A stretch of DNA of 64,000 bases from Micromonospora echinaurantiaca (GTDB lineage Bacteria > Actinomycetota > Actinomycetes > Mycobacteriales > Micromonosporaceae), in contig NZ_LT607750.1 of assembly GCF_900090235.1 (NCBI RefSeq), positions 4,703,001 through 4,767,000 on the forward strand, in the 5' to 3' direction. Below, in pieces: positions 1 through 43,409 of the stretch. The notes under the pieces are model-generated. The model was not told the origin of the DNA. It worked only from the letters and a program-made list of their open reading frames with translations, and ran no database searches. The position numbers and the translations under genes were made by a program. The first letter of the stretch is position 1, and each line of letters opens with the position of its first letter.

Positions 1-1
1 G

Positions 2-508
2 CTGCGCAGCGAGGTCGGCATGGTCTTCCAGTCGTTCAACCTCTTCGCGCACAAGACCATCCTGGAGAACGTCACCCTCGGTCCGGTCAAGGTGCGCAAG
101 GAGAAGCCCGCGGCGGCCCGCGAGCGTGCCCTCGCCCTGCTCGACCGGGTCGGCATCGCCAACCAGGCCGACAAGTTCCCGGCCCAGCTCTCCGGTGGTC
201 AGCAGCAGCGGGCGGCGATCGCCCGCGCGCTGGCCATGCAGCCCAAGGCGATGCTCTTCGACGAGCCCACCAGCGCGCTCGACCCGGAGATGGTCGGTGA
301 GGTGCTGGAGGTGATGACCTCGCTGGCCCGCGACGGCATGACCATGGTCGTCGTCACCCACGAGATGGGCTTCGCCCGGCACGCCGCCAACCGGGTCATC
401 TTCATGGCCGACGGCCAACTGGTCGAGGACGCTCCCCCGGCCGAGTTCTTCGGCAACCCGCGCAGCGAGCGGGCCAAGGACTTCCTCTCCAAGATCCTCA
501 CGCACTAG
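2..508 (+). CDS. gluA: Glutamate ABC transporter ATP-binding protein GluA (5' truncated)
   Basis: The C-terminal 168 residues of a polar amino acid ABC ATPase; the start lies upstream of the window. Visible are the Q-loop (MVFQSFNLF, near residue 7), the signature LSGGQQQR (about residue 63), Walker [12 protein letters not shown] (about 86) and the H-loop VTHEMGF (His about 120). Walker A must lie in the missing part. It would energise import through the two permeases that follow. It is the first gene of a four-gene operon whose order (ATPase, binding protein, two permeases) and position near recX match gluABCD of Streptomyces. Glutamate specificity is inferred from that context; glutamine or aspartate remain possible. 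Confidence 0.9.
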
Positions 509-37078: not shown

Positions 37079-37290
37079 CCGGGCGACCCGCGACGAGCAG
37101 CGTCGATGCCCGGCGTCCTCGGGTGCGGCCGACGACCGGTGCCCGACAGCAGATACGGACGATTGGGTACTTCCTAACCCACCCGTCCGCGTCGCATGCT
37201 GCGGTTGAGTGCTCACCGATCGTCAACGCGAGCGCGACCGGGCCGCCACGCCGGGGTGGTGGCCGCCGCGCCCCGACCCCGGGGAGAGCC

Positions 37291-40200
37291 ATGGTGATGT
37301 TCCGTCGACTCCGGATCCCCTGGGCGGCCCGCCTCGGCGCCACCGCCGGCCCGACCCCCACCGTCCCGGCGGCCCGCACCGCCGACCCGGTCGCCCCCGC
37401 GCCGGCCAGCCTCGACCCGGCCGCCGTGCCGCGCTGCTTCGGCCCGGTGCCGAACTTCGCCGGCAGTCCCCGCCCGGTGGTCGACGCCGACGGCCGGGTG
37501 ACGGCGGGCACCGGCCTCCGGAAGTTCGTCGACGCGCTGCCCGGCCTCGGCGCGCTGGGCGCCAACGACCTCGGCGCGCACCTGCCGCTGGCCACGCCGG
37601 ACACCATCAGCTACCCGGGCTGCGACTACTACGAGATCGGCCTGCAGGAGTACGCCCAGCGCCTGCACCGCGACCTGCCGGCCACCCGGCTGCGCGGCTA
37701 CCGGCAGCTCAACCTGGGCACCGACGCCGACGGGCACAACACCGTCGCGCCCCCGGAGCGCCCCTGGCACCTGGGGCCGGTGGTGCTGGCCCGGCGGGGG
37801 CGGCCGGTGCGGATCAAGTTCATCAACCAGCTCCCCACCGGCCGGGCCGGGGAACTCTTCCTCCCGGTCGACCCGACCGTGTACGGGGCCGGCACCGGCC
37901 CGCTGGACGGCCCGGCGCCGTACCCGCAGAACCGGGCCGTGCTGCACCTGTCCGGCGCGCAGACGGCCTGGATCTGCGCCGGGAACCCGTGGCAGTGGAT
38001 CACCCCGGCGGGCGAGATCACCCCGTACCCGAGCGGGCCCGGGCTGACCCACGTGCCGGACATGCCGCCGCCCGGAGCCGGCGCCACCACCCGCTACTAC
38101 CCCAACGAGCAGAGCGGCCGGCTGCTCTGGTTCCACGACAACACCCTCGGCCTGGCCCGGCTGACCGTCTACTCCGGTCAGGTCGCGCTCTACCTGCTCA
38201 CCGACCCGGCCGAGGAGCAACTGGTCGCCGACGGCGTGCTGCCGGCCGACCAGGTGCCGCTGGTGATCGAGGACAAGACCTTCGTGCCGGACGACACCCA
38301 GCTCGCCAGGGAGGACCCGACCTGGGACCGGGACCGCTGGGGCGCCCGGGGCAGCCTCTGGCACCCGCACGTATACCAGCCCCGACAGAACCCGTACCAG
38401 GCCAGCGGGACGAACCCGACCGGCCGGTGGGACTACGGCCCGTGGTCGCGTACCGCCGAGGTGGGCGGGCCGGCCGCTGCGGTCGACGGTGCCGGCCCGG
38501 CGCACCCCGGCCCGACGCCGGTGCCGAACCCGCACCACGACCCGGTGACCGACCCGGCGGAGCCGCCGTGGACGCCCGGCGTGCCGCACCCGTCGGCGGT
38601 GCCGGAGGTGTTCGGCGACACCATGCTGGTCAACGGCGCCGCCTACCCCTACCTGACCGTCGAACCCCGCACCTACCGGTTCCGGATCCTCAACGCCTGC
38701 CCCGACCGCAGCCTCAACCTGGGCCTCTACCGCGCCCGGTCGACCGGGCCGATGTGGGCTGCCGACGGCGGCCTGGCCGACGCCGACGCCGGCGAGGTGC
38801 CGATGGTGGACGCGGTCCGGGCGCCGGGCCGCCCGCCCGGCTGGCCGACCGACGGACGCGACGGCGGGGTGCCCGACCCGGCCGCCGCCGGCCCGGAGAT
38901 GGTCCAGATCGGCAACGAGTGCGGGCTGCTGCCGGCGCCGGTGGTGATCCCGAACCGGCCGGTGGGCTACCGGTACGACCGCCGCGACCCCACCGTGCTC
39001 AACGTCGACGGGCACGCCCTGCTGCTCGCCCCCGGCGAGCGGGCCGACGTGCTGGTCGACTTCGCCACCGTCGCCCCGGGTAGCACGCTCATCCTGTACA
39101 ACGACTGCCCGGCCCCGCTGCCCGGCTTCGACCCCCGTTACGACCAGCACACCGGCGCGCCGGACCGCACCGCCGAGGGCGGCGCGCCGCCCACCCGGGC
39201 GGGGTACGGCCCGAACACCCGCACCCTGCTCCAGTTCCGGGTGGCCGGCACGCCGGCGCCCCGGTACGACCTGGCCCGGCTGCGTGACCGGCTGCCCCGG
39301 GCGTACGCGGCCAGCCAGCGGCCGCGGATCGTGCCGCAACCCGGCCAGGACGCCGGCACCGGCCGGGCCACCCTGGTGCCGGCGCACGCCACCACGGTCA
39401 CCTTCACCCCGGTCGGTGCCGCCGCCCCGGTGACCCTGCCGCTGCTCGGCAAGGTGGTGCAGCAGGTCTTCGAGCCCGGGTACGGCCGGCTGACCGGGCG
39501 GCTCGGCGTCGAGCACCCGCACGCCGGGCCGCTCTCCCCCGCCACCCTGCCGCTCGACCCGACCGACCCGGCCACCGAGATCCTCTTCGCCACCGACCCG
39601 GCGGTCGGGATCGGCGCCCCCGCCGACGGCACCCAGCTCTGGCGGATCAGCGGGCACGCCCGGCAGACCCAGCCGGTGCAGTTCGACGGCTGCGACGTGC
39701 AGATCGTCAACCGGGTCGGCTGGGACGGCACGGTCCGGCCGGCGGAGGGAGCCGAGCTGGGCTGGAAGCAGGTCGTCCGGGTCGACCCGCGGGAGGACGT
39801 GATCGTCGCCCTGCGGCCGGTCGCCCCCGCCCTGCCTTTCAAGATCGGCGACAGCGTACGGCTGCTCGACCCGACCCGGCCGGCCGGCGCCCGGACCGGC
39901 TCGACCCCGGTGAGCCCGGCCGACGGCCGGCCGGCGATGGTCCTGAACCACCTGGTCAACCTGGGCTGGGAGTACCGCTGGCACAGCCGGCTGGCCGGGC
40001 ACCGCGACCAGGGCATGAGCCGGCCGCTGGTGCTGCGGGTCGCGCCGAAGGCGCCCACCGGGCTGACCGCCACGCCCGCTCCCGGCTCGGCCACCGCGCT
40101 GCCGGCCATCGCGCTGGCCTGGACCGGCAACGGCAGCCGCCCCCCGGCCACCAGCCACCTGCTCCAGCGGGCCACCGAGGCCACCTTCACCGAAGGGCTG

Positions 40201-40917
40201 ACCGAGATCACCGTGGCGGCCACCGCCACCCGGTACACCGACGCCACCGTCACGCCCGGGGTGACCTACCACTACCGGATCCGCGCCGAGAACGCGGTCA
40301 GCTGCTCCGCCTGGTCGAACAGCGTGCCGGCCGCGGTGCGGCTGACCGCGCCCGCCGGGCTGGCCGCGGTGATCCCGCCGGCCGCGCCGCTGCGGGTCGC
40401 GCTGCGCTGGGCGAACCGCTCCTTCGCCACCGGCATCGACGTGCAGCGGGCCACCAACCCGACGTTCACCAGCGGGCCGGGCACCACCGCGATCGGCGTC
40501 GGCGACCAGCACCTGGACGCCGCCGTCGCCCCGGACACCACGTACTACTACCGGGTGCGGACGACGTACCTGGGCGCGGCCTCACCCTGGTCGACGGTGG
40601 CCACGGTGACCACCCCGCCGGTGCCCGCCACGCCGACCACGGTGAGCGCCACCGCCACCGCGCCCGGCCCGGACACCGCAACGGTGATCCTGGGCTGGTC
40701 GGCCAGCACCCCGACCGGGCCGGGCGCCGGGTTCATCGTGCAGCGGGCCCTGGACCCGGGATTCGGCCGCGAGGTGGCCACCTTCACGGTCACCGGCCGG
40801 GGGTTCACCAACACGGGCCTGGCCCGCGGGGTCATCTACCACTACCGGATCCGCTCGTTCAACGTCGTCGGCAGCTCGCCGTTCACCACGCCGGTGGCGG
40901 TCGCCACGCCGGAGTGA
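37291..40917 (+). CDS. Multicopper-oxidase-fold protein lacking copper ligands, with three FN3 domains
   Basis: 1208 residues. Residues about 40-915 align by motif to CotA/bilirubin-oxidase-like multicopper oxidases, but nearly every ligand is replaced: HLHG reads HLSG (219-222), WFHDH reads WFHDN (282-284), HPxHxH reads QPVQFD (794-799), and HCH reads HSR (898-900), losing the type-1 Cys. Only isolated His remain (219, 282, 898, 904). Electron transfer via copper is therefore unlikely. Residues about 920-1208 form three fibronectin III repeats (YHYRIRAEN, YYYRVRTTY, YHYRIRSFN). No convincing signal peptide. GGGGAG sits six nt before ATG 37291. Role unknown; perhaps structural or spore-coat-like binding. 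Confidence 0.85.
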   Translation: MVMFRRLRIPWAARLGATAGPTPTVPAARTADPVAPAPASLDPAAVPRCFGPVPNFAGSPRPVVDADGRVTAGTGLRKFVDALPGLGALGANDLGAHLPLATPDTISYPGCDYYEIGLQEYAQRLHRDLPATRLRGYRQLNLGTDADGHNTVAPPERPWHLGPVVLARRGRPVRIKFINQLPTGRAGELFLPVDPTVYGAGTGPLDGPAPYPQNRAVLHLSGAQTAWICAGNPWQWITPAGEITPYPSGPGLTHVPDMPPPGAGATTRYYPNEQSGRLLWFHDNTLGLARLTVYSGQVALYLLTDPAEEQLVADGVLPADQVPLVIEDKTFVPDDTQLAREDPTWDRDRWGARGSLWHPHVYQPRQNPYQASGTNPTGRWDYGPWSRTAEVGGPAAAVDGAGPAHPGPTPVPNPHHDPVTDPAEPPWTPGVPHPSAVPEVFGDTMLVNGAAYPYLTVEPRTYRFRILNACPDRSLNLGLYRARSTGPMWAADGGLADADAGEVPMVDAVRAPGRPPGWPTDGRDGGVPDPAAAGPEMVQIGNECGLLPAPVVIPNRPVGYRYDRRDPTVLNVDGHALLLAPGERADVLVDFATVAPGSTLILYNDCPAPLPGFDPRYDQHTGAPDRTAEGGAPPTRAGYGPNTRTLLQFRVAGTPAPRYDLARLRDRLPRAYAASQRPRIVPQPGQDAGTGRATLVPAHATTVTFTPVGAAAPVTLPLLGKVVQQVFEPGYGRLTGRLGVEHPHAGPLSPATLPLDPTDPATEILFATDPAVGIGAPADGTQLWRISGHARQTQPVQFDGCDVQIVNRVGWDGTVRPAEGAELGWKQVVRVDPREDVIVALRPVAPALPFKIGDSVRLLDPTRPAGARTGSTPVSPADGRPAMVLNHLVNLGWEYRWHSRLAGHRDQGMSRPLVLRVAPKAPTGLTATPAPGSATALPAIALAWTGNGSRPPATSHLLQRATEATFTEGLTEITVAATATRYTDATVTPGVTYHYRIRAENAVSCSAWSNSVPAAVRLTAPAGLAAVIPPAAPLRVALRWANRSFATGIDVQRATNPTFTSGPGTTAIGVGDQHLDAAVAPDTTYYYRVRTTYLGAASPWSTVATVTTPPVPATPTTVSATATAPGPDTATVILGWSASTPTGPGAGFIVQRALDPGFGREVATFTVTGRGFTNTGLARGVIYHYRIRSFNVVGSSPFTTPVAVATPE

Positions 40918-40926
40918 CCGGCCGGC

Positions 40927-41706
40927 TCAGGGGGCGCGCAGCGGGGTGTTGACGGCGCGCAGCTCGGCCAGCGCCGCGGCGACGCCGTGCAGCAGGTCGG
41001 TCGCCTCGGTCAGCTGGGCGGCGGCCGGGTGCTCGGCATCCGGGCGGGCGTCCTCGGCCACGTAGCCGGCGGCGGCCACCACCAACCGCTCGTACGCGGC
41101 GACGCCGCTGTCGAGTTGCGCGGTGAGCGCCTGGTGCGCCTCGGCCAGCGGCGGGCGGGCGTCGGCCGGGGCGAGCCGCAGCGCGCGCTCCACACTGGCC
41201 ACCCGGTTGGCGAGGTCACGCAGGGACCGGTCGGCCGTGGCCGCCTCCACCACCGCGGGCTCGGCGAGGCCGGTGAGCCGGGGCGCCATTCCGGCCAGGG
41301 TCAGCGCCGCCCGGTCCAGCCGGGCCCACGGCTCGGCGGCGCTGGTGCCGCGCAGCGCCACCCGGGAGCGGACCCGGCGTACCTCGGCGAGCACGCCCGG
41401 GCCGACGGGGAGCCGTTCCACCGCGGCGACCAGCCGGGCCCGGGACCGGGCGGCGGCCTCGGCCGGGTCGAGCGGCGGCGGCGCCGGCCGGGCGGCCAGC
41501 GCGCGCAGGTCGATCCAGCGCCAGGCGGCCAGCGCCACGGCGCTGCCGGCGCCGGCGGCCCAGGCCGCGTCCGGCAGCCCCAGGCCGGCGTACGGGGTGA
41601 GCACGGCGGCGGCGCCACCGAGCCCGCCGGCCAGCACGCTCCACCGGCGGGCGGACCGCCGCAGCCGGCTCAGCCGCCGGAAGTACCGGGTTCGCTCGTC
41701 TGCCAC
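40927..41706 (-). CDS. pspM: Envelope stress protein PspM
   Basis: 259 residues: a short basic N-terminus, two hydrophobic segments (about 22-62; VLAGGLGGAAAVLTPYAGLG, AAGAGSAVALAAWRW) and a helical cytosolic tail. Position after clgR and pspA, 25 nt downstream of pspA, matches PspM (Rv2743c) of M. tuberculosis, which recruits PspA to the membrane. Identification relies on layout and topology more than motifs. Its end converges on the oxidase-fold gene with 9 nt between them. Confidence 0.72.
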   Translation of the reverse strand: MADERTRYFRRLSRLRRSARRWSVLAGGLGGAAAVLTPYAGLGLPDAAWAAGAGSAVALAAWRWIDLRALAARPAPPPLDPAEAAARSRARLVAAVERLPVGPGVLAEVRRVRSRVALRGTSAAEPWARLDRAALTLAGMAPRLTGLAEPAVVEAATADRSLRDLANRVASVERALRLAPADARPPLAEAHQALTAQLDSGVAAYERLVVAAAGYVAEDARPDAEHPAAAQLTEATDLLHGVAAALAELRAVNTPLRAP

Positions 41707-41731
41707 CTGTGCCTCCTCGACCCCCGGCCGC

Positions 41732-42613
41732 TCAGCCGGCGGCGGTGGTGTCCCCCGTGCCTCGTTCCCGGCTCATGCTGGCCCGGATCTCGTCGAGCCG
41801 GGCGGCGGCCGCCGGGTCGGCGGCCGGCTCGGCCGGCGCGGCCTGCTCGGCGCGGGGCGCGGCGGGCTGTTGCCGCTGGGCGCCGAGCTGCTCGCCGGCC
41901 ATGCTGGCCCGGATCTGCTCCAGCCGGGCCGAGCCGGCCGAGTCCAGGGTCGCCTTCTGGATCTCCAGCATCCGACCCTCGACGGAGTTGCCGGCCAGTT
42001 CGGCCCGGCCCATCGCGTTGGCGTAGCGCCGCTCGATCCGGTCGCGCACCTCGTCGAGGGTGGGGGTGGTGCCGGAGGCGGTCAGCGCCGACATCGACTC
42101 CAGCGACTGGGCGACGCTCTCCTGCATCTTGGCCTGCTCCAGCTGGCTGAGCAGCTTGGTGCGCTCGGCGAGCTTCTGCTGGAGGATCATCGAGTTGTTC
42201 TCCACCGCCTTGCGCGCCTGCGCGGCGGCCCCGAGCGCCTGGTCGTGCAGGGTCTTGAGGTCCTCGGTGGCCTGCTCGGCGGAGACCAGCTGGGAGGCGA
42301 GGGTCTGCGCGGACTGCTCGTAGCGCCCGGCCTCGGCCTCGTCGCCCCGGGCGCGGGCCTGGTCGGCGAGGACCAGGGCCTGCCGGGCGTTGCCCTGCAA
42401 CCGCTCGACCTCGGACATCTGGCGGGAGAGCTTCATCTCCAGCTGGCGCTGGTTGCCGATCACCGCGGCGGCCTGCTGGACCAGCGCCTGGTGCTGGCGC
42501 TGCGCCTCCTCGATGGCCTGCTGGATCTGCACCTTGGGATCGGCGTGCTCGTCGATCTTGGCGCCGAAGAGCGCCATCAGGTACTTCCAACCCTTGACGA
42601 ACGGGTTCGCCAT
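41732..42613 (-). CDS. pspA: Phage-shock protein PspA
   Basis: 293-residue ESCRT-III/Vipp1-like coiled-coil protein that coats damaged membranes. The N-terminal amphipathic helix ([17 protein letters not shown]) and [24 protein letters not shown] coiled coil are canonical to about residue 225. Beyond that an unusual C-terminal part carries a duplicated 10-residue motif, [10 protein letters not shown] (229-238) and [10 protein letters not shown] (271-280), separated by an Ala/Pro/Gln linker. Expected to be induced by ClgR, encoded directly upstream, and to act with PspM. Confidence 0.93.
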
Positions 42614-42645
42614 CTCCGCGGTATCCCCTCAGTCGCGTCGCTGCG

Positions 42646-42685
42646 CCGCACCGTGCCGCACGGCCCGACGGTTGCGGTGCGGCAC
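42646..42685 (-). promoter_or_regulatory. Overlapping inverted repeats in the pspA upstream region
   Basis: GTGCCGCAC (42653-42661) pairs with GTGCGGCAC (42677-42685); the overlapping CCGCACCG (42646-42653) pairs with CGGTGCGG (42675-42682); and CCGTGCCGCACGG (42651-42663) is itself palindromic. These mutually exclusive pairings sit 33-72 nt before the pspA start, in the leader or promoter. It could be a ClgR operator or an RNA switch; which one cannot be told. Confidence 0.45.
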
Positions 42686-42812
42686 TGGCTCCATCGTCCC
42701 AGCCGGACGCCAGCGGGGCATCCGTACCGGCCGGTGGGCAACACCGGCACCGTCCGCGATCAACCCTACGCGGCGCGGGCCACCGACGGCCACGGAGCGC
42801 GGCGGGCGGGGA

Positions 42813-43262
42813 TCAGGCGGCGCAGACCACGTCGCGGTCGGCCTGGCGGACCCGGGTGCTGCGCAGGGTGGCCTTGAGCGGGGAATCCTGGTGGACCGAG
42901 ACGGCGACCTTGCCGTCGGAGCTGACCTGGTGCACGGCGCGGCCGGTGGCCTTGCGGACGGCGGGTCGCGCCACCGCGGCCGGCTCGGCCGGCTCGTCCT
43001 GCACCGGCACCAGCACGCCCGGCATCTGCTCGGCGAGCGCGACGGTGTCGCTGACCTCGCGCAGCAGCTCGGACAGGCGCGCGCCGAGCGCGTCGCAGAT
43101 GGCGGCCAGCAGCTCGCTGGAGGGCTCCTTCTGGCCGCGCTCGATCTCGGAGAGATAGCCGAGGCTGACGTTGGCCGCGGAGGAGACCTCCCGCAAGGTG
43201 CGGTGCTGCCCCTGCCGGCGCGCCCGCAGTGCGTCACCGATCACCCGGCGTAGCAGGACCAT
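42813..43262 (-). CDS. clgR: Stress regulator ClgR
   Basis: 149 residues with an N-terminal Xre-type helix-turn-helix (about 10-65; [28 protein letters not shown], the conserved ClgR recognition helix). ClgR activates clp protease genes, and in mycobacteria the psp operon; in corynebacteria it also acts on recA-region genes. The protein ends in -CAA; in Streptomyces the terminal Ala-Ala of ClgR is a Clp degradation signal, so this copy should be conditionally unstable. ATG 43262 has GGAGG 5 nt upstream; the longer open frame is Arg/Gly-rich and non-homologous. Confidence 0.92.
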
Positions 43263-43409
43263 CGCACCTCCCCCTGAGGGACACCTCTGTCGCCCCCGGC
43301 CGCCCGGCCCGGCGCGGCGACCGCGCCGGCCCCGACCGCCGGAGCCTTCCCGCAACCGTACCCGTTGCCGCGCCCGGCGACATCCCACCCCGCCCGGGGA
43401 TCGCGGGTT

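What the first reader, a model, noticed from the sequence alone, without database searches (positions are those of the whole stretch)
37291..40917. Multicopper oxidase fold stripped of its copper ligands and fused to three FN3 domains
Motif by motif, the four ligand clusters of CotA-like oxidases can be located, and each has lost ligands: HLSG for HLHG, WFHDN for HDH, QPVQFD for HPxHxH, HSR for HCH, including the type-1 Cys. The frame is intact over 1208 codons with normal codon bias, so this is a maintained protein and not a pseudogene. A purified fold kept without its chemistry, plus three FN3 repeats, suggests a new binding or structural role. The missing signal peptide is also unexpected for an FN3 protein.
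Basis: partly seen in the sequence, partly recalled or inferred. Interest (0 to 1): 0.78.

Follow-up and report, generated by a model that had tools for sequence, protein, structure and literature searches.

The report
Copper-stripped laccase kept as scaffold
This Micromonospora gene encodes a protein with the shape of a copper-using oxidase whose copper-binding residues have been lost piecemeal across its relatives while the rest of the protein is preserved, so it probably now works as a binding or scaffold protein and not as an enzyme.

Summary
The ORF at 37291-40917 (1208 aa) aligns and folds like CotA but keeps 5 of 12 copper-ligand positions; the type-1 Cys and the acids at CotA D116 and E498 are gone. 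It carries three FN3 domains. It belongs to one clade (Micromonospora, Salinispora, Plantactinospora) with a shared genomic place (Nei2 - this gene - PspM). None of 112 clade members scored has a full trinuclear site; 145 of 150 relatives outside have 12/12, FN3-bearing paralogues among them. No ligand is lost in every member, so parsimony gives an intact ancestor and parallel, piecemeal loss. Ligand codons drift almost freely (pN/pS 0.83); MCO scaffold (0.39) and FN3 tail (0.34) are constrained. The clade also has a conserved upstream block and a basic N-terminal motif absent from the intact sister group. Best reading: a former oxidase kept as a copper-free binding or scaffold protein, working like FtsP/SufI and insect MCORP. 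Corrections: the FN3 tail occurs in intact relatives, the sister group lacks a signal peptide too, and most lost ligand positions vary and are not fixed replacements. Its binding partner is unknown.

The parts
37291..40917 (+). Whole gene: 1208-aa MCO-fold protein with degenerate copper sites and C-terminal FN3 tail
37151..37230 (+). Conserved upstream block (CAGA..GGACGATTGGGTA.TTCC, then TCGCATGCTGCG, then TCACCGATCGTCA), probable promoter or leader
   Evidence: mean identity of 69 orthologues to the window 0.81-0.98 in six of its eight 10-base bins (0.49 and 0.59 in the other two), against 0.03-0.55 in the 14 bins upstream; 37241-37290 is conserved too, 0.77-0.93; distance to ATG varies from 125 to 134, not in threes, so not coding (54 of 69); inner spacing 16 or 17 in the 51 of 75 sequences where both patterns were found; one exact copy in the genome
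37291..37332 (+). N-terminal basic motif M-x-x-F-R-R-L-R..W..R
   Evidence: pattern in 109 of 115 clade members, 0 of 11 intact sister proteins, 2 of 139 other relatives; not significantly amphipathic; codons 1-8 pN/pS 0.46, not more constrained than the MCO body
37612..40035 (+). Three-cupredoxin MCO-fold region (residues 108-915)
37945..37956 (+). HLSG: CotA H105 kept (H219), H107 lost (S221)
37978..37980 (+). A230 at the place of CotA D116 (acid near the trinuclear site)
   Evidence: alignment; D in 90 of 90 intact, A in 98 of 112 degenerate
38134..38142 (+). HDN: CotA H153 kept (H282), H155 replaced (N284)
39670..39687 (+). QPVQFD: CotA H419, H422, H424 all lost
39982..40017 (+). HSRLAGHRDQGM: H491 kept, C492 and H493 lost, H497 and M502 kept; R905 for E498
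40045..40914 (+). Three FN3 domains (residues 919-1208)
   Evidence: Pfam fn3, 2 stretches; tail model; structural matches to multi-FN3 chains

Best explanation
The gene encodes a former large FN3-bearing multicopper oxidase that no longer reduces oxygen and is kept as a copper-free, non-catalytic binding or scaffold protein. Shown by sequence: the MCO fold (model), the lost ligands and second-shell acids, purifying selection on scaffold and FN3, near-neutral drift at the ligand sites taken together, a conserved upstream block, a shared genomic place, and an N-terminal motif found in this lineage and not in its intact sister. Inferred: in the common ancestor of this locus the protein became needed for what it binds and not for what it oxidises; the copper sites then decayed piecemeal and in parallel, and in the main group part of the old pocket was refilled (N284, A230, R905 nearly fixed). 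Working model: a rigid three-cupredoxin body presenting three FN3 arms to partner proteins or a polymer, docked by the basic N-terminal peptide through a variable linker, inside the cell or in a layer reached without a classical signal peptide.
For: Of 265 aligned relatives 115 have 10 or fewer of 12 ligands within one clade (support 99; 99/99 with a mixture model and without ligand columns); of the 150 outside it 145 have 12/12, 4 have 11/12, one 8/12. 0 of 112 has a complete trinuclear site, 4 of 112 a complete type-1 site. Of 247 columns near-invariant in 90 intact relatives, the 12 ligand columns depart in 0.56 of 112 clade members on average, the other 235 in 0.14 (permutation 4e-5, which ignores kinship). 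pN/pS: ligand codons 0.83, other MCO codons 0.39, FN3 0.34; ten neighbouring genes 0.17-0.50. Nei2 matches upstream in 76 and PspM downstream in 70 of 80 loci, at least one of them in 78, neither in the two intact paralogue loci. Upstream block. N-terminal motif 109 of 115 against 0 of 11. Of 181 columns at least 95% conserved in both intact and main-group proteins 9 differ, 5 of them at or within 14 residues of a ligand.
Against: No expression, localisation or partner data. NG86 is biased in high-GC genes, and the gene evolves faster (0.41) than nine of its ten neighbours; close-pair dN/dS has median 0.33 and maximum 0.54. No operon partner was found; the Psp genes are convergent, so adjacency may be incidental. 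Five ligand positions remain in the window protein, and H105 and H153 are kept in 111 and 114 of 121 sequences, so some metal binding is not excluded. The N-terminal motif is not more constrained than the body. Two of 80 loci (L049, L057) have a disturbed frame near the 3' end.
Confidence: 0.66

Rival explanations
1. It still uses a metal: the leftover His residues (H219, H282, H898, H904) and M909 hold one copper or zinc, for storage, buffering or electron transfer.
For: H105 and H153 equivalents kept in 111 and 114 of 121; 4 of 112 relatives (P0102, P0110, P0113, P0116) keep a complete type-1 set.
Against: In CotA the kept residues serve different copper atoms (recalled); H491 (54 of 121) and H497 (69 of 121) are not conserved, and the window's nearest relative (95% identical) has Tyr at both; type-1 Cys absent in 103 of 112.
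Confidence: 0.12
2. It is a decaying pseudogene of a once useful oxidase, caught before the frame breaks.
For: Ligand sites drift near neutrally; the gene is faster than nine of ten neighbours; L049 and L057 have disturbed frames.
Against: An open frame of over 600 codons in 80 of 80 fetched loci (the fetch itself selects good matches); pN/pS of scaffold and FN3 0.34-0.39, within the range of the neighbours; upstream block conserved; degenerate copies persist at the same place in three genera.
Confidence: 0.05
3. It is a regulatory pseudoenzyme that pairs with an active multicopper oxidase of the same cell.
For: Some species carry an intact paralogue at another locus (PLK6-60: L063 and L088; RP3T: L050 and L090). 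The window's genome has five other MCO loci.
Against: The window's genome has no intact paralogue of this family (the other two matches are partial, 36 and 46% identity); in the capped lists only 11 intact sister proteins appear against 115 degenerate ones.
Confidence: 0.1
4. It is an active oxidase with unconventional ligands.
For: The fold is kept.
Against: Type-1 Cys, the HCH bridge, all of HPxHxH, D116 and E498 are gone in the window, and replacements differ between relatives; insect MCORP, with comparable losses, had no detectable laccase activity (PMC4203857, abstract and passages).
Confidence: 0.04

Closest known systems
E. coli SufI/FtsP
   Different: Tat-exported periplasmic septal protein under 480 residues in the PDB chains, no FN3 (recalled); 23% identity in the structural alignment; 42.8 bits against the family cut-off of 581
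Insect MCORP and plant SKU5
   Same: MCO relatives lacking most copper ligands; MCORP has no detectable laccase activity yet is essential (PMC4203857, abstract and passages)
   Different: Eukaryotic, no FN3 (recalled); the paper says that both keep the two T2 His, whereas the window keeps one T2 His (H105)
Intact FN3-bearing MCO paralogues (P0111, P0115, P0117-P0120, P0122-P0126)
   Same: Same overall architecture; the six listed are 54-57% identical over 96-98% of the window protein; fn3 listed for five of these six (P0119 lists only PF25833)
   Different: All 12 ligands, D116 and E498; no FRRLR N-terminus; the two loci fetched (L088, L090) lie elsewhere
Geobacter OmpB / Leptothrix MofA
   Same: OmpB is described as an MCO with an FN3 domain, homologous to MofA (PMC5566968, passages)
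   Different: Metal redox role proposed, outer-membrane associated; sequence relation to this family was not tested here
Bacillus CotA laccase
   Same: Best sequence match among solved structures and among the best fold matches
   Different: Active four-copper enzyme (recalled), 513 aa, no FN3

Membership tests
Multicopper oxidase fold (CotA-like, three cupredoxin domains) | Three-domain cupredoxin fold | tested here: met
Multicopper oxidase (enzyme) | Type-1 copper set H, C, H | tested here: not met
   Q794, S899, H904 in the window
Multicopper oxidase (enzyme) | Eight trinuclear-site histidines | tested here: not met
   3 of 8 kept in the window; 0 of 112 clade members complete
Multicopper oxidase (enzyme) | Oxidase activity and four Cu | not testable with these tools
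   needs purified protein
Copper-free MCO-fold proteins (FtsP, MCORP type) | MCO fold with most ligands lost in a maintained gene | tested here: met
   7 of 12 lost, fold, selection
Copper-free MCO-fold proteins (FtsP, MCORP type) | No bound copper, no oxidase activity | not testable with these tools
   needs purified protein
FtsP/SufI (NF008135) | Score above family cut-off | tested here: not met
   42.8 bits against cut-off 581
FtsP/SufI | Tat signal peptide and septal localisation | tested here: inconclusive
   no hydrophobic stretch in the first 45 residues by a simple scale; localisation not testable
PhsA o-aminophenol oxidase (NF045554) | Score above family cut-off | tested here: not met
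   70.2 bits against cut-off 950
OmpB/MofA FN3-type MCO | Sequence homology to OmpB or MofA | not tested
   no OmpB sequence was fetched; names listed did not identify one

The most novel reading that the evidence does not exclude
A whole oxidase lineage was converted into a scaffold: a basic N-terminal docking motif and a dedicated upstream element came with release of the enzyme from catalysis, after which several branches stripped their copper sites independently and by different routes (C492/H491 in one, H155/H493 in others). The surviving intermediates (2 to 10 of 12 ligands) form a natural series from oxidase to scaffold, possibly serving the envelope-stress (Psp) region or the spore layer of Micromonosporaceae.
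Probability: 0.35. Interest if true: 0.7.

Novelty: new variant of a known kind. Interest (0 to 1): 0.52.

Why it matters
The copper-free MCO-fold proteins that I know of or met in the papers are few and unrelated (FtsP, MCORP, SKU5). Here one orthologous gene, at one genomic place in most fetched loci, can be followed through species with 10 down to 2 of 12 ligands, beside intact paralogues, so the order in which an enzyme loses its chemistry while its fold is kept becomes testable. It also warns that names such as 'laccase' or 'multicopper oxidase' given to some Micromonospora entries are probably wrong as to activity.

Tried and rejected
Pseudogene by frame decay: judged unlikely. Signal peptide: no stretch over the hydrophobicity threshold in 115 of 115 clade members (a simple scale, not a trained predictor). 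N-terminal amphipathic helix: 1 of 19 peptides beat its shuffles at 0.05, so I call it a basic motif only. Regulon of the upstream element: one exact and one two-mismatch site in the genome, so no regulon seen; the second half alone is no commoner than its control (19 against 32 sites); no sigma-70-type site or terminator, no Rfam match. Neighbours of the intact paralogues: 1 of 10 ORFs had a Pfam hit (EamA); some of those ORFs may be wrong-frame, so nothing learned. OmpB through a third homologue search: not resolved. Literature: searches 'multicopper oxidase' with Micromonospora and copper ligands, with Salinispora, with pseudoenzyme, with Micromonospora and fibronectin type III listed no paper that I recognised, from listed titles and abstract starts only, as describing this family; the listings were capped (15 of 65 and 12 of 35), and most subscription papers are not held.

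Rows dropped: P0094, P0109, P0121 (short or poorly aligned), P0140 (8/12, outside the clade) and P0190 (11/12) were left out; the 112 degenerate proteins are 115 less the first three. The loss counts were made on the 110-row tree, which holds P0140 and P0109. L032, L045, L049, L057, L062, L074 were left out of the codon analysis for contig ends, partial N-terminus or disturbed frame, and its 70 sequences also leave out L083-L085, L088, L090. One search used 33 loci that I picked for long flanks out of 80, without the window. The homologue lists show the best 120 of 1760, 7670 and 7034 hits.

Full report

Ligands. Mapped to CotA, the window protein has H S | H N | Q Q D | H S R H M, 5 of 12. 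In 121 aligned proteins (the window and the best 120 of 1760 hits) the count runs from 2 to 12. Six of the 121 have 12/12; one search lists fn3 for five of these. With two more searches the set grew to 265: 115 with 10 or fewer, all from the first list, and 150 others of which 145 have 12/12, 4 have 11/12 (axial Met to Phe) and one (P0140) 8/12. The residue at CotA D116 is D in 90 of 90 intact proteins and A in 98 of 112 degenerate ones; at E498 it is E in 90 of 90 and R in 93 of 112.

One clade, many routes. With ligand columns removed, the degenerate proteins form one clade: 68 of 110 rows, SH-aLRT 99, and 24 of 40 rows, 99/99 under a profile mixture model. Its sister is a group of 11 Micromonospora and Plantactinospora proteins with 12/12. 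Inside are four supported subgroups whose order is unresolved. Each of the 12 ligands survives in some member: of 10 Plantactinospora-type proteins all lack H155 and H493 but 8 keep the Cys; the four of another subgroup keep H155 and H493 but lack H491, the Cys and the Met. Under irreversible loss the common ancestor therefore had all 12, and losses number from 1 (H155) to 14 (H419) per position; unordered counts are lower, 1 to 12 (both include P0140). Reversal (one-base His/Gln changes) cannot be excluded, so the numbers are soft.

Selection. In 247 columns near-invariant among 90 intact proteins, the 12 ligand columns depart in 0.56 of 112 clade members on average, the other 235 in 0.14 (median 0.009); permutation 4e-5, without correction for kinship. 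Some non-ligand columns depart as much, several of them beside ligands. Over 2415 pairs of 70 orthologues, ligand codons have mean pN 0.259 and other MCO codons 0.135 at about equal pS (0.333 and 0.342); close-pair dN/dS has median 0.33. On 33 loci, pN/pS is 0.83 for ligand codons, 0.39 for the MCO scaffold, 0.34 for FN3, 0.46 for codons 1-8, 0.78 for the linker 9-45, and 0.17-0.50 for ten neighbouring genes; the whole gene (0.41) is faster than nine of the ten. Of 181 columns at least 95% conserved in both 149 intact and 92 main-group proteins, 172 are the same and 9 differ, among them N284, A230 and R905. So catalysis has been released from selection, the body has not, and part of the old pocket has settled on new residues.

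Place and control. Of 80 fetched loci, Nei2 matches upstream in 76 and PspM downstream in 70; 78 have at least one of the two (names). L062 and L068 lack the Nei2 match; in L057 the disturbed frame overlaps PspM. The two loci with neither, L088 and L090, are intact 12/12 paralogues in genomes that also have the degenerate copy. A block at 37151-37230 is conserved, and so, less strikingly, is the stretch down to the ATG. The inner spacing is 16 or 17 in 51 of 75 sequences; 24 did not match one or both patterns, among them L083-L085, which show by eye a related second half. A basic N-terminal motif is found in 109 of 115 clade members, 0 of 11 sister and 2 of 139 other proteins. A hydrophobic stretch like that of a signal peptide occurs in 0 of 115, 0 of 11 and 104 of 139, which suggests that export was lost before the ligands.

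How it works. Closest in behaviour are FtsP/SufI, described as lacking metal cofactors, with a structure that suggests a scaffolding role (PMC2661564, abstract and passages), and MCORP, without detectable laccase activity yet essential (PMC4203857, abstract and passages). I infer the same here: a non-catalytic body with FN3 arms. What it binds is unknown. CotA is a spore-coat protein without a signal peptide, and Micromonospora forms spores (both recalled), so a spore layer is one candidate; the conserved neighbourhood of the Psp envelope-stress genes is another, weaker one because those genes are convergent.

Novelty. The kind (copper-free MCO fold) is known; the bacterial FN3-bearing family, its parallel piecemeal loss and its graded intermediates were not met in my literature searches, which cover only part of the literature.

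Noticed in passing
37151-37230: Strongly conserved upstream block, its two halves 16-17 bases apart in 51 of 75 sequences; one exact copy in the genome; sigma factor or regulator unknown.
   Followed up: partly
37291-37332: Basic N-terminal motif MxxFRRLR followed by a variable linker, in the degenerate clade but not in its intact sister group.
   Followed up: partly
40927-43388: Convergent PspM-PspA-ClgR genes next to this gene in Micromonospora, Salinispora and Plantactinospora.
   Followed up: partly
L049:7722-12704 and L057:3787-8055: In Micromonospora sp. ATCC 39149 and sp. H61 the frame is disturbed near the 3' end of the gene (sequence error or real decay).
   Followed up: no
L070, L072, L078 (upstream of the gene): In three Salinispora loci the Nei2 match starts about 2.5-2.7 kb before this frame, against about 1 kb in most Micromonospora loci.
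   Followed up: no
L001 and L007 (G000:C1:4396642-4397709): Another MCO locus of the same genome with two Cu-oxidase_2 matches in one 1105-codon open frame; five MCO loci besides this gene in all.
   Followed up: no
P0140: A relative outside the clade with 8 of 12 ligands, all four losses in the last motif, perhaps a frame error at the C-terminal end.
   Followed up: no
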